This document shows, piece after piece, positions 27,306 to 33,051 of a DNA stretch of 46,781 bases. Origin of the DNA: an uncultured Burkholderiales bacterium. GTDB taxonomy: Bacteria > Pseudomonadota > Gammaproteobacteria > Burkholderiales > Thiobacillaceae. The notes below the pieces were generated by a model. The model made no database searches. It was not told the DNA's origin and saw only the letters and a list, made by a program, of their open reading frames with translations. Location: positions 1-46,781 of the forward strand of contig CALHRD010000015.1 in assembly GCA_938038385.1 (NCBI GenBank), given 5' to 3'. The translations under genes and the position numbers were made by a program. Each line of letters begins with the position of its first letter. The stretch's first letter is position 1.

Positions 27306-28736
27306 TCAGCCGCCCAGGCGCTGTTTGAGCAGGGCGTTGACCTGCTGGGGATTGGCGCGCCCGCCGGTGGCCTTCATCACCTGCCCGACCAGGGCGTTGA
27401 AGGCCTTGTCCTTGCCGGCGCGATACTCCTCCACCGACTTCGGGTTGGCGGCCAGGACCTCGTCGATGATGCGCTCCAGTTCGCCCGCATCCGACATCTG
27501 TTTGAGGCCGCGCGCCGCGATGATGGCGTCGGCCTCGCCCTCGCCGGCCCACAGGGCGGCGAACGCCTCCTTGGCCAATTTGGAGGAGAGGGTGCCGTCG
27601 TCGATACGCTTGAGCAGCCCGGCCAGGCGTTCGGGCGGGATGCGGCTTAGCGTGATGTCCAGGCCCTCGCGGTTGAGCGCGGCGGACAGATCTCCCATCA
27701 CCCAGTTGGCGGCCAGCTTGGCCGGCACCCCGGCGCTCATGACGGCCTCGAAATACTCGGCCATGGCGCGCGAGGCGGTGAGGGTCGCGGCGTCGTAGGC
27801 GGACAGACCCAGATCGCTCTGATAGCGGGCCTGCTTCTGCTGCGGCAGCTCGGGCAGCGCGGCGCGTATCTGCCCGATCCAGTCCTCGTCCAGCTTCACC
27901 GGCAGCAGGTCGGGGTCCGGGAAGTAGCGGTAGTCCTGCGCCTCCTCCTTGCTGCGCATCATGCGTGTCTCGCCGGTGTCCGGGTCGAACAAAACGGTGG
28001 CCTGGTGGATCGCGCGGCCGTCTTCCAGCTCGGCGATCTGCCAGCGCGCTTCATACTCGATGGCCTGCTCCAGGAAGCGGAAGGAGTTCAGATTCTTGAT
28101 CTCGCGCCGGGTGCCGAACTCGCTCGACCCCTTGGGCCGCACCGAGACGTTGGCGTCCACCCGGAAGCTGCCCTCCTGCATGTTGCCGTCGCAGATGCCG
28201 ATCCAGGTCACCAGGGTGTGCAGCGCCCGGGCATAGGCCACCGCCTCCTGGGCGCTGCGCATGTCGGGCTCGGAGACGATCTCCAAAAGCGGTGTGCCGG
28301 CGCGGTTCAGGTCTATCCCCGTCATGCCGTGGAAGTCCTCGTGCAGGCTCTTGCCGGCATCCTCCTCGAGATGCGCACGGGTGATGCGGATGGCCTTGGT
28401 CTGCTCGCCCACGTGGATGGGGAGGCTGCCAGCCTCGACGATGGGCAGCTCGTATTGGCTGATCTGGTAGCCCTTGGGCAGGTCGGGGTAGAAGTAATGC
28501 TTGCGCGCGAAGACGTTGACGCGGTTCAGCCTCGCGCCGATGGCCAGACCGAAGCGTATGGCCCGCTCCACCGGGCCTTTGTTGAGCACCGGCAGCACCC
28601 CCGGCAGCGCCAGGTCCACCGCGCAGGCCTGGGTGTTGGGCGCGGCGCCGAAGGCGGTGGCGGCGCCGGAGAAGATCTTCGAGGCGGTGGTGAGCTGGAC
28701 GTGCACCTCCAGGCCGATGACGGTTTCCCATTGCAT
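27306..28736 (-). CDS. gatB: Aspartyl/glutamyl-tRNA amidotransferase subunit B
   Basis: A 476-residue subunit of GatCAB, which binds misacylated Glu-tRNA(Gln) or Asp-tRNA(Asn), activates it with ATP, and receives ammonia from GatA. It starts [15 protein letters not shown] and includes [31 protein letters not shown] and the C-terminal YqeY-like helical domain. The ATG at 28736 is preceded by TAGGAACACGAC: the AGGA overlaps the stop codon (TAG) of the upstream restriction endonuclease gene. gatB is normally adjacent to gatA; here roughly 2.5 kb of other genes intervene. Confidence 0.96.
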
Positions 28737-28745
28737 GTCGTGTTC

Positions 28746-29711
28746 CTAATCTCTTATACCAGTCAGCGAGAAGATTCGCTCCTTGAAATCTTGGTATTCC
28801 TCGCTGTTGGCTCGCATCAATTGAGACAGTCGATAGAACCGGTCTGTACTCGGCGATTCCTGGCGTGCCAGGGAAACGTCGAGCCGTTCGACGTTTACGA
28901 CAGTCCAACATTCCGTATATCCGTTTGCACGTGCTTTCTGATGGCTTTTTTCCGCTTCTCCCAATCTATTGTGAATGTTGGAGAAGTCCGTTCCACCCTT
29001 GATCTCCATGGCGATTATGTTCCGAAAACCGCCCTTGGCCATTTGCTCCCGGATAATGATATCCGGATCGGCGGCAAATTCGATCCACACGGTTCTTCGA
29101 GCCGCATTGCGAACCTCGATGTGACTGGCACCACTTGTTTTCACTGTTTTTTTAACGATGCCGTGGATGATCTCGAATACCTTGAGCGTGGCATTGCCGC
29201 CTCTGCGGACGTTGGCGCCCCCCCGCAATTGGGGACCGAACGTCAGCAGCGTCAGGTCATCAAGGAGGTGCCGGCTGATCCGTTCCGGTCCGATCCCTTC
29301 GACAAGTATTGCAGCTGCTTGATTGATGGCCTTGCAGAACGCTTCTAGGTGTTGATCAGTTTTAGGAGTTATCAGCCCTTTCGTCTCCATGGACTTGAAG
29401 GACGCCGCGCCGGTGCTCGTGTTGAAAAATTCTTTCTGGCTATATCCCAACAGGAGCCGGTAATAAGCCAGCAGGCGAGGATTCGCCCTGAGAACGCAGG
29501 GCACTGCCAACACCAACTCGCCCCGCAGTCCGTGTCGCGCTAACGATGCCATGGCCCTCTTCGGGGCCAGTTTGCCGAGCTCTTTGTCAATAAGGCCAAT
29601 GTCCAGACCCTCAACCGTGCGACCCAGTGCATCCTGCAGGTACAAGCTACGTGCCTGGCCCAAAGCAAGGCAAAATTCAATCTGTTGGGATGGTGGTGTG
29701 AAGCTGAACAT
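28746..29711 (-). CDS. Type II restriction endonuclease, XcyI family (predicted CCCGGG)
   Basis: A 321-residue endonuclease. It matches the RE_XcyI family (XcyI, Cfr9I, XmaI; all cut C^CCGGG) in overall sequence and length. A PD-(D/E)XK nuclease site is visible: P216-D217 in AADPDIII and E236-I-K238 in IIAMEIKGG. The SQKEFFNTSTGAASFKSME region (residues 91-109) may bind DNA. The ATG at 29711 overlaps the methyltransferase stop (TGATG). The gene is AT-richer than its neighbours (for example 27 G+C in the 60 bases at 28921-28980, against 41 in 33241-33300), which supports recent acquisition. Specificity is inferred from the family and from the companion methyltransferase. Confidence 0.8.
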   Translation of the reverse strand: MFSFTPPSQQIEFCLALGQARSLYLQDALGRTVEGLDIGLIDKELGKLAPKRAMASLARHGLRGELVLAVPCVLRANPRLLAYYRLLLGYSQKEFFNTSTGAASFKSMETKGLITPKTDQHLEAFCKAINQAAAILVEGIGPERISRHLLDDLTLLTFGPQLRGGANVRRGGNATLKVFEIIHGIVKKTVKTSGASHIEVRNAARRTVWIEFAADPDIIIREQMAKGGFRNIIAMEIKGGTDFSNIHNRLGEAEKSHQKARANGYTECWTVVNVERLDVSLARQESPSTDRFYRLSQLMRANSEEYQDFKERIFSLTGIRD

Positions 29712-30586
29712 CACGCCGCTTTTAAGCGAACAACCTTATGCATCAGCGTTTCAAGCCGCTTAACTGCCAAGTCGGCATATTCCGGATTCAGCTCAATCCC
29801 GACGAAACGTCTGTTGAGTTTCTGGCAGACTAAACCCACCGTGCCTGATCCAAAAAATGGGTCGAGTATGAAATCCTGTTCGCGGCTGCTGCTTAGTATG
29901 CACGGTTCAATTAGGGCCGGTGGAAAAACCGCATAGTGGGCGTGATCGGTGGCCTGAGTATGGATGCTCCATACACTGCGGAGGTTGCGCGACGAACCGT
30001 TGGCGGCGGGTTCGCGAGCAGCCTGGTGGTCATAAAAATAGCGCTCGGACTTGGCCAGCATAAATAGATATTCATGACTGCGGCTTGGACGGTCCTTAAC
30101 GCTTTCAGGCATGGCATTGGGCTTATGCCAGACGATGTCGCTGCGTAAATACCAGCCGTCCTCCTGGAGGGCGAGCGCTAAACGCCAAGGGATGCCGAGT
30201 AAGTCCTTCGGCTTGAGCCCTTCTGGGGTATCCGGGCGCACACTCATGGCACGAGCCGGATTCTTCCTGTCAGGGGCACGGTAGCCACGATTGCCACTTG
30301 TGTAACCGTCGCCGATATTCAGCCAGAGCACCCCATCATTTCTTAACACCCGTTTGACATCGGCAAAGATCGCAACCAGACGGTTGATGAACTGATGCAA
30401 AGACTTTTCCAGTCCTATCTGCCCCTCTATACCGTAGTCGCGCAGACCCCAATAGGGTGGCGACGTCACCACGCATTGCACGGAGCCGGAGGGCAGATGG
30501 GGCAGAACCTGCAAGGCGTCCCCCTCGTAGAGAACGGAATCCGTCAGTGGCGCGCGGTCGGGCGATGGGATTGATTCGAGCTTCAT
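29711..30586 (-). CDS. Site-specific DNA methyltransferase (N4-cytosine, beta-class), partner of the XcyI-family nuclease
   Basis: A 291-residue methyltransferase of the beta order. Catalytic motif IV TSPPYWGLRDYG (41-52) comes first, the serine marking N4-cytosine specificity, and the SAM-binding motif DPFFGSGT (242-249) lies near the C-terminus. The EGQIGLE sequence after motif IV is characteristic of M.Cfr9I/M.SmaI-type enzymes for CCCGGG. I chose the ATG at 30586 because GGAGA precedes it; an ATG at 30598 without such a site would add four residues. It is immediately followed by, and overlaps, the endonuclease gene. Base composition is lower in G+C than the flanking gat genes. Confidence 0.88.
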   Translation of the reverse strand: MKLESIPSPDRAPLTDSVLYEGDALQVLPHLPSGSVQCVVTSPPYWGLRDYGIEGQIGLEKSLHQFINRLVAIFADVKRVLRNDGVLWLNIGDGYTSGNRGYRAPDRKNPARAMSVRPDTPEGLKPKDLLGIPWRLALALQEDGWYLRSDIVWHKPNAMPESVKDRPSRSHEYLFMLAKSERYFYDHQAAREPAANGSSRNLRSVWSIHTQATDHAHYAVFPPALIEPCILSSSREQDFILDPFFGSGTVGLVCQKLNRRFVGIELNPEYADLAVKRLETLMHKVVRLKAA

Positions 30587-30622
30587 GCTTCTCCGCATGA
30601 TTCATGCACACATGGATTATCG

Positions 30623-31243
30623 TTACCTGTCGTGCGCGAGGTCCTGCCTGACCGCCTGCGGCAGGGGCCAGTCGAACAGTTTATGAGGGGTGCTGGAAAG
30701 CTCGGGGGCGATGGCCAGCCGCAGCGTATCCTCGGCGGCCAGAACGACCGCTGCAGGATAGCGTCCATCAGCGCCGAGGGTGTGCAGTTCGGCGCAGCGT
30801 CCGATGGGGTCGACGATCAGGTATTCACACACCCCGGTCGACTCATAGAGGGCGTGCTTCTCGCGCTTGTCCTCGGCGGCGGTGGCGGGTGAGAGCACTT
30901 CCAGCACGAAGTAGGGGGCACCCTGGACGTTCATGCCGTGGGCGAGCTTGGCCGGGCCGCAGACAACGATGAGGTCGGGTTGTACTACGGTGTCTTCCGA
31001 CAGCACCACGTCCACCGGTGACAGCAGCAAGGTGCATTCCGAACCGGGTCCGGTACCTCCTCCCCTGCCGATGAAGTAGGCCAGGGCCAGATGCAGCTTG
31101 CCGACCAGGACCTGATGCTCGATCCCCGGTGCCGGCGACATGTCGTAGACCACGCCGTGGATCGGCTCGCAGCGGACTTCTGCCGGCCAGCCCAGGTAAT
31201 CGGCGACTATATGGTGTCTAGGCTGCGGCTGCGCGTGCCCCAT
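30623..31243 (-). CDS. Uma2 family (DUF820) predicted endonuclease
   Basis: A 206-residue protein of the Uma2 family, a PD-(D/E)XK nuclease fold. The pattern is PDLIVV (D), then VLEVLSPATAAEDKREKHALY with the conserved EVLSP and K, and GVCEYLIVDP. These proteins are abundant in cyanobacteria and many other bacteria; biological role is unclear and some associate with mobile DNA. It lies between gatA and the R-M pair and, unlike the R-M genes, has the high G+C of its surroundings. The ATG at 31243 has a GAGGGGG tract upstream. Confidence 0.88.
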   Translation of the reverse strand: MGHAQPQPRHHIVADYLGWPAEVRCEPIHGVVYDMSPAPGIEHQVLVGKLHLALAYFIGRGGGTGPGSECTLLLSPVDVVLSEDTVVQPDLIVVCGPAKLAHGMNVQGAPYFVLEVLSPATAAEDKREKHALYESTGVCEYLIVDPIGRCAELHTLGADGRYPAAVVLAAEDTLRLAIAPELSSTPHKLFDWPLPQAVRQDLAHDR

Positions 31244-31252
31244 GAGGCCCCC

Positions 31253-32710
<1,458 letters not shown>

Positions 32711-32722
32711 GTTCGTGGGGAT

Positions 32723-32762
32723 GGGGGATGGGAAAATGCGTGTCACGTATGTCCCATCCCCC
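32723..32762 (-). promoter_or_regulatory. Strong hairpin in the gatC-gatA intercistronic gap
   Basis: GGGGGATGGGA (32723-32733) is perfectly complementary to TCCCATCCCCC (32752-32762). The loop can extend the stem with ATGCG/CGTAT, leaving a five-base TGTCA loop. On the transcript it forms right after gatC and just before the gatA start, which lacks a visible ribosome-binding site. It could set the GatC:GatA ratio or mark an RNA processing site. The stem is directly visible; the role is inference. Confidence 0.6.
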
Positions 32763-32763
32763 C

Positions 32764-33051
32764 TCACTCGATGACCTTGGGCACCAGGTAGAGCCCCGCC
32801 TCCACCTGGGGGGCGATGGCCTGGAAGGCCTCGCGCCGGTCTGTCTCGGTCACCATGTCCTCGCGCAGGCGCTGGTGGAGGTCGCGGGCGTGCGCCATGG
32901 GTTCGATGCCGGTCGTGTCGATGGCCTGCATCTGCTCGATCAGGTGGAAGATGTCGTTGAGCTGGGTCTGATAGCGGGCGGCTTCGTCCGTATCGACCCG
33001 AATGCGCGCCAGATGCGCGATGCGCTTGACGTCGTCTATCGAAAGCGACAT
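32764..33051 (-). CDS. gatC: Aspartyl/glutamyl-tRNA amidotransferase subunit C
   Basis: A 95-residue helical subunit that stabilises GatA and assists GatB. It shows the standard pattern: [48 protein letters not shown] and LVPKVIE. It is first in the gatC-gatA arrangement and divergent from mreB, with about 93 bp between. Start ATG at 33051. Confidence 0.95.

What the first reader, a model, noticed from the sequence alone, without database searches (positions are those of the whole stretch)
27306..33051. Type II restriction-modification pair and Uma2 gene embedded between gatA and gatB
gatC-gatA-gatB is normally one block and often essential. Here gatA and gatB are separated by a Uma2 gene and an N4-cytosine methyltransferase/XcyI-family nuclease pair, all on the gat strand. 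The nuclease ends in TAG, and that TAG is part of the AGGA ribosome-binding site of gatB, so gatB translation and perhaps transcription depend on the inserted genes. This arrangement would make loss of the R-M system costly and is a plausible way to fix a selfish R-M system in a genome. Lower G+C of the pair supports recent arrival.
Basis: partly seen in the sequence, partly recalled or inferred. Interest (0 to 1): 0.7.

Follow-up and report, generated by a model that had tools for sequence, protein, structure and literature searches.

The report
DNA-cutting defence pair inside essential operon
A bacterial DNA-cutting defence pair sits between two genes that help make a charged tRNA, and unrelated defence systems occupy the same spot in related bacteria, which suggests that such systems are swapped between bacteria at a fixed address.

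Summary
Confirmed: on the minus strand the order is gatC-gatA-Uma2-M-R-gatB; M is an N6_N4 methyltransferase, R an XcyI-family nuclease, and R's stop overlaps gatB's AGGA. It is not a one-off. Of 215 genomes of the order with gatA and gatB close together, 49 gaps exceed 250 bp; 7 hold a named restriction nuclease (XcyI, EcoO109I, BglII or DpnI family) and 1 a candidate pair. The gatC-gatA gap exceeds 250 bp in 0 of 40 of these genomes. In 199 relatives, 4 of 5 intact XcyI and 5 of 5 strong EcoO109I nucleases are gat-linked. Each family's gat-linked copies group together but disagree with the hosts' GatB tree: they change host and keep the address. Best reading: the gap works like a Neisseria 'minimal mobile element', promoterless cassettes probably being swapped by recombination in gatA and gatB. 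Swapping and addiction to gatB are inferred; against addiction, one congener has gatB elsewhere, another an empty gap, and CCCGGG is not specially depleted. R-M operon insertion is known; my paper searches listed no report of this site.

The parts
32764..33051 (-). gatC
   Evidence: TIGR00135 98.5 bits, cut-off 47.1
31253..32710 (-). gatA
   Evidence: TIGR00132 606 bits, cut-off 481
30623..31243 (-). Uma2-family gene, a separate module (also alone between gatA and gatB in G011, 80% identical)
   Evidence: PF05685 2.3e-26
29711..30586 (-). M: DNA methyltransferase with TSPPYW motif, probably N4-cytosine (class recalled)
   Evidence: PF01555 3.5e-53; PADLOC MTase_II 4.1e-132; conserved in relatives
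28746..29711 (-). R: XcyI-family restriction endonuclease with an intact PD...EIK motif
   Evidence: PF09571 1.9e-111; PADLOC REase_II 1e-122; motif conserved in 5 of 5 aligned relatives
28744..28748 (-). Overlap of the R stop codon (TAG) with the AGGA ribosome-binding site of gatB
27306..28736 (-). gatB
   Evidence: NF004014 792.6 bits, cut-off 414

Best explanation
In this order of bacteria the gatA-gatB junction is a recurrent docking address for small cassettes of genes on the gat strand, Type II R-M systems prominent among them. The window carries one: an XcyI-type M-R pair behind a separate Uma2 module. It shows no promoter of its own, so it is most likely transcribed from the gat promoter, M before R, and the 3' end of R has taken the place of gatA's 3' end as the ribosome-binding region of gatB (anatomy shown; transcription and coupling inferred). 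A given R-M lineage keeps this address while changing host (shown by trees). The simplest vehicle is homologous recombination in the conserved gatA and gatB flanks after uptake of foreign DNA, as in minimal mobile elements (inferred). Sitting just upstream of gatB, probably essential here, may make crude deletion of the cassette harmful (inferred, weak).
For: Recurrence: 7 named restriction nucleases plus 1 candidate pair in 215 gaps, the window included, all 8 on the gat strand. Control: gatC-gatA gap over 250 bp in 0 of 40, gatA-gatB in 16 of the same 40, hand-picked. Linkage: 4 of 5 intact XcyI and 5 of 5 strong EcoO109I nucleases of 199 relatives are gat-linked. Tree conflict: the gat-linked XcyI copies lie together (R 99/96, M 99/94), G000 groups with G047 and G105 apart from congener G001 (96/93; AU p 0.0325 against G000+G001), while GatB puts G000 with G001 and G003 (100/99). 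EcoO109I M-R of G021 and G006 are sisters (99/99) though their GatB belong to different clades. Coupling: the R stop overlaps the gatB start in 5 of 5 gat-linked EcoO109I loci. No integrase, transposase or flanking repeat was seen in the gaps opened or around the window's insert.
Against: The mosaic test of gatA/gatB gave no clear recombination tract. Much of the cargo is not defence (LysE, GNAT, DUFs), so the gap may simply be permissive. XcyI copies also sit elsewhere: G014 and G655 in the order, and most of the 37 loci. In G001 gatB is not next to the cassette. Most carriers are draft genomes. No expression or strain-level data.
Confidence: 0.6

Rival explanations
1. Selfish anchoring: the R-M pair is kept because gatB expression depends on it and because loss of M leads to killing by remaining R.
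For: Packed genes and overlapping gatB signals; glnS present and no asnS above cut-off; operon maintenance through post-segregational killing is proposed for other operon-inserted R-M systems (passages of PMC4615327 and PMC10273834).
Against: G001 has M-R behind gatA and gatB elsewhere; G003 has an empty gap. Non-toxic cargo uses the same gap. CCCGGG is not specially depleted: 0.67 in G000, 0.61 in G003.
Confidence: 0.25
2. Neutral permissive gap: the gatA-gatB junction tolerates any insertion, and R-M genes are there only because they are common travellers.
For: 49 of 215 gaps exceed 250 bp and most hold Uma2, small conserved proteins, LysE, GNAT or DUF genes.
Against: Does not by itself explain why 9 of 10 intact or strong XcyI and EcoO109I nucleases of 199 relatives are here or why each lineage keeps the address across hosts. 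It is compatible with the best explanation as its first step.
Confidence: 0.3
3. Vertical descent: an ancestor had gatA-M-R-gatB and most descendants lost M-R.
For: The gat-linked XcyI copies lie together in the trees, as do the EcoO109I copies against two plasmid outgroups.
Against: Conflict with the GatB tree for both families (AU p 0.0325, not extreme). Two or more unrelated families would each need ancestral presence and massive loss. R of G000 is closer to G047 (75.1%) than to congener G001 (68.4%), while GatB is the reverse (68.4% and 86.9%).
Confidence: 0.12
4. Assembly chimera or contamination.
For: The window's genome is a 140-contig draft, 92% complete.
Against: The same kind of arrangement is found in separately assembled genomes on long contigs: G047 108 kb, G152 214 kb and G600 139 kb, G182 168 kb. 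Reading frames are intact.
Confidence: 0.02

Closest known systems
Minimal mobile element (Saunders and Snyder 2002; known here only through later papers), e.g. the pheS/pheT Type II R-M locus of meningococci
   Same: [quoted passage not shown] of PMC3082526). pheS/pheT, like gatA/gatB, encode subunits of one enzyme of tRNA charging.
   Different: Here compared between species, genera and families rather than strains; incorporation by homologous recombination alone is not shown; the cassettes overlap the translation signals of gatB (I did not check this for pheS/pheT).
Operon insertion of R-M systems (PabI pair in glutamate and histidine operons of Helicobacter/Campylobacter)
   Same: R-M on the operon strand between functionally linked housekeeping genes; [quoted passage not shown] of PMC10273834).
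   Different: Other enzymes and operons; here several unrelated nuclease families use one junction in many genera.
XcyI and EcoO109I (PmeII) Type II R-M systems
   Same: Nuclease families PF09571 and PF14511, each paired with an N6_N4 methyltransferase.
   Different: Many relatives sit elsewhere: most of the 37 XcyI loci, and small plasmids for EcoO109I/PmeII (13 plasmid records, about 47% identity).
Neisserial drg (dam replacing gene) at leuS/dam
   Same: DpnI-like nuclease between conserved genes, lower G+C, likened to a minimal mobile element (passages of PMC4269198). A DpnI-family gene lies in the gat gap of G608.
   Different: Another address, and another nuclease family than the window's.

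Membership tests
Type II R-M system, XcyI family | Nuclease matches PF09571 over its length with catalytic residues kept | tested here: met
   1.9e-111, profile positions 4-304 of 305; PD...EIK kept
Type II R-M system, XcyI family | Adjacent cognate DNA methyltransferase | tested here: met
   PF01555 3.5e-53; M next to R in the relatives with both
Type II R-M system, XcyI family | Recognises and methylates CCCGGG | not testable with these tools
   Specificity is recalled. CCCGGG shows no special avoidance (0.67 in G000, 0.61 in G003), which neither shows nor excludes it
Minimal mobile element | Region between two conserved genes | tested here: met
   gatA and gatB flank it; 215 genomes have them close together on one strand
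Minimal mobile element | Different whole-gene cassettes in different strains | tested here: met
   Met between species; strains of one species were not compared
Minimal mobile element | Incorporated solely by homologous recombination in the flanks | tested here: inconclusive
   Tree conflict with a constant address fits; the flank mosaic test is unclear; no repeats flank the insert
R-M operon insertion | R-M on the same strand inside a run of functionally linked genes | tested here: met
R-M operon insertion | Imposes operon maintenance by post-segregational killing (proposed, not defining in all papers) | not testable with these tools
   Needs experiment; G001 and G003 show that the link is not absolute

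The most novel reading that the evidence does not exclude
gatA-gatB is a long-lived home address of R-M lineages: XcyI- and EcoO109I-type systems have become promoterless alleles of the gat operon, tied by overlapping signals to a probably essential gene, and spread between genera and families by recombination in the flanks instead of on mobile elements. This would be one concrete answer to how R-M systems turn over fast while being rare on mobile elements.
Probability: 0.4. Interest if true: 0.75.

Novelty: new member of a known kind. Interest (0 to 1): 0.55.

Why it matters
Oliveira et al. 2014 ask how R-M systems can turn over so fast while poorly represented in mobile elements, and name small integration hotspots and natural transformation as candidates (abstract and passages of PMC4176335). 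The gatA-gatB gap is a concrete, countable hotspot of that kind, with several unrelated systems, empty sites in close relatives and the same lineage in different hosts, so the question becomes testable at one locus. It also shows a defence system written into the expression signals of a probably essential gene.

Tried and rejected
Rejected: chance or mis-assembly (same kind of arrangement in separately assembled genomes). Held unlikely as sole cause: vertical descent. Led nowhere: palindrome avoidance (CCCGGG ranks 15th of 64 in both G000 and G003); mosaic test of gatA/gatB (the first 60 gatB codons of G047, 80.6% identical to G000, are the highest among the rows from outside the family, which is not decisive); promoter scan; flanking repeats; structure of R (mean pLDDT 61; best PDB match E 0.022, nuclease folds among the top rows but nothing significant); EcoO109I relatives in viral contigs (none confirmed); PMC2614495, opened as a supposed source on operon insertion, whose passages held nothing on it.

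Dropped on checking: I first took the R-gatB spacing to be the same in G000 and G047 (it is 9 and 6 nt), and an A-starting second gatB codon to mark R-M carriers (it is also common in genomes without R-M).

Rows dropped before counts: the result tables were cut at about 150 rows. Of 190 (gatB) and 186 (gatA) genomes with hits among 199 relatives, only the 129 with both genes printed entered the count (127 on one contig and strand; G001 and G006 split). Another 90, from the 140-genome order sample, entered: 89 on one contig and strand (G566 split), of which G156, with the genes 1.3 Mb apart, was set aside. This gives 215. Only gaps over 250 bp were opened. G105, G140, G006, G001 and L072 are carriers outside the 215.
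Full report
WHAT IS THERE. The minus strand from 33051 to 27306 reads gatC, gatA, Uma2, M, R, gatB. Pfam and NCBIfam identify the genes well above cut-off; R and Uma2 have Pfam but no NCBIfam match, and M is below the NCBIfam cut-offs. R is RE_XcyI (1.9e-111). M is N6_N4_Mtase (3.5e-53) with a TSPPYW motif, which I recall as typical of N4-cytosine enzymes. The motifs PD...EIK of R and TSPPY of M are kept in the aligned relatives. Spacers from gatA to gatB are 9 nt, 36 nt, a one-base stop/start overlap and 9 nt. M and R are 54-56% G+C, gatA and gatB 68-69%, Uma2 65%, so only M-R looks foreign by composition.

THE HOST GENES. The genome shows one gatB and one gatA at E up to 1e-150. It has a clear glnS (767 bits) but no asnS above cut-off (best 97 bits, 343 required) in a draft 92% complete. 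GatCAB is therefore probably the route to Asn-tRNA, and gatB probably essential. This is inference from gene content.

EMPTY AND FILLED SITES IN CLOSE RELATIVES. Congener G003 (GatB 93% identical) has gatA and gatB 2 nt apart. G011, the next branch in the GatB tree, has gatA-Uma2-gatB with a Uma2 80% identical to the window's. Congener G001 has gatC-gatA-M-R without Uma2; its gatB lies on another contig with no gatA match in the 6.6 kb before it. So Uma2 and M-R are separate modules that come and go at one place.

THE ADDRESS IS SHARED: XcyI. PF09571 was found in 6 of 199 relatives: five intact copies and one fragment (G170). Of the five, G000, G001, G105 and G047 are gat-linked and G014 is not. 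A sample of 399 genomes of the order (4 hits, three of them known already) added G655, with no gat gene within its 8 kb. A sample of 369 genomes of the class (6 hits with the window's) added G513, with no gat gene in its 3.7 kb locus, two weak hits and two fragments. A pattern scan of GTDB species genomes gave 37 loci. Four are gat-linked: the records of G105, G001 and G047, and L072 (M-R, a metal-dependent hydrolase, gatB; its contig starts inside M). Several of the other contigs are too short to tell.

THE ADDRESS IS SHARED: SURVEY. From, 215 genomes (the window's included) have gatA and gatB close together on one contig and strand. Of the 215 gaps, 49 exceed 250 bp: 31 of 127 and 18 of 88 (G156 set aside). 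All 49 were opened (29, 18, G000 and G047). They hold XcyI pairs (G000, G047); EcoO109I pairs (G021, G110, G152); a BglII-family nuclease with an MT-A70 methyltransferase (G182); a DpnI-family nuclease without a partner in the gap (G608); and a D12 methyltransferase with a 249-aa protein that has no restriction-family match but looks HNH-like by eye (G600). That is 7 named plus 1 candidate of 215, all 8 on the gat strand. Other gaps hold Uma2, a small 'CACPA' protein family, LysE, GNAT or DUF genes.

THE ADDRESS IS SHARED: EcoO109I. PF14511 was found in 6 of 199 relatives: five strong hits and one weak (G061, 27.5 bits, above the cut-off of 22.5 but covering part of the profile, and not at gat). 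All five strong ones are gat-linked: G021, G110, G152 and G140 between gatA and gatB, and G006 as M-R-gatB up to a contig end, with gatC-gatA-Uma2 at the end of another contig. Relatives on 13 plasmid records are below 60% identity, the listed ones 46-47%.

CONTROLS. The gatC-gatA gap exceeds 250 bp in 0 of 40 genomes (maximum 159), against 16 of the same 40 for gatA-gatB. The 40 were hand-picked and enriched for large gatA-gatB gaps, so this shows that the junction differs from its neighbour, not a rate. Among loci fetched earlier, L049 (G057) has 589 bp between gatC and gatA, so that junction is not always tight. As a rough yardstick, about two R-M systems per genome (abstract of PMC4176335) and an assumed 2,500 junctions would put about 0.2 R-M systems in this junction in 215 genomes by chance.

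SITE LOYALTY WITH CHANGE OF HOST. In trees of 36 R and 35 M proteins the five gat-linked XcyI systems lie on one side of a branch (99/96 and 99/94). Within that group the window lies with G047 (another family) and G105, apart from congener G001 (R 99/93; M+R 96/93, AU p 0.0325 against G000+G001). GatB puts G000 with G001 and G003 (100/99; G105's GatB is cut by its contig end and not in that tree). For EcoO109I, M-R of G021 and G006 are sisters (99/99), although GatB puts G021 with G014/G028 and G006 with G024; only two plasmid outgroups were used, and the placing of G110 and G140 is not firm. So within each family a lineage kept the address and changed hosts. The flanks gave no clear mosaic signal, so recombination in gatA/gatB is the simplest vehicle, not a shown one.

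COUPLING. In all five gat-linked EcoO109I loci the R stop codon overlaps the gatB start (ATGA in G006, G021, G110, G140; TGATG in G152). In L072 the hydrolase stop does so (ATGA). In G000 the ribosome-binding site overlaps the R stop; in G047 R ends 6 nt before gatB; in G105 a second Uma2-like gene lies between R and gatB. G182 and G608 have longer spacers before gatB, so coupling is not general. In empty-gap G003 the end of gatA plays this part. No promoter stands out inside the window's insert.

AGAINST. G001 shows that gatB can be away from the cassette. CCCGGG is no more depleted in 352 kb of G000 than in 373 kb of G003 (0.67 against 0.61), so there is no mark of long restriction pressure at that site, if it is the site. 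Varied non-defence cargo means the gap is at least partly just permissive. XcyI copies exist elsewhere in the same order (G014, G655). I have no data on expression, methylation or exchange between strains.

LITERATURE. R-M insertion into operons is known for PabI systems, with operon maintenance by post-segregational killing suggested (passages of PMC4615327 and PMC10273834). [quoted passage not shown] the pheS/pheT locus of meningococci carries a Type II R-M (passage of PMC3082526). Oliveira et al. name small integration hotspots and natural transformation as possible routes of R-M turnover (passages of PMC4176335). Searches joining gatA/gatB or the amidotransferase with restriction terms listed no paper whose title or abstract start reports this site; most listed papers were not opened. 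In the one opened for its gatA/gatB mentions, both serve as housekeeping markers (PMC12748263). The original minimal-mobile-element papers were not seen, and Furuta et al. 2010 is not held, so earlier mention cannot be excluded.

VERDICT. The site works like a minimal mobile element in a tRNA-amidotransferase operon, with R-M lineages that keep the address. I file it as a new member of a known kind, with the recombination step open; the addiction idea is possible but unproven.

Noticed in passing
L101:400-723 (+), L104:244-573 (-) and gap ORFs of G031, G080, G162, G100, G065, G077, G124, G091: A conserved protein of about 110 aa with a 'YMCACPA' motif lies between gatA and gatB in 10 genomes of the survey; the one scanned had no Pfam match.
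   Followed up: no
L045:1-455 and L038:6260-6660: In G001 the cassette M-R is followed not by gatB but by an open frame that by eye resembles a helicase/nuclease subunit; gatB is on another contig with a promoter-like AT-rich stretch before it.
   Followed up: partly
L044 (3159-base contig of G105): Two different Uma2-like genes bracket the R-M pair: gatA-Uma2-M-R-Uma2b-gatB.
   Followed up: partly
L128 (G085, gatA-gatB gap): The 266-bp gap seems to hold two copies of one short sequence, read as a repeated peptide in one frame.
   Followed up: no
G156:C1 and G608:C1: G156 has gatA and gatB 1.3 Mb apart; in G608 the gatA match begins only at residue 118, inside a very long open frame.
   Followed up: no
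window:26338-27255 (-): Directly downstream of gatB lies a phosphonate-binding (PhnD-like) periplasmic protein gene (PF12974, 3.7e-68).
   Followed up: no
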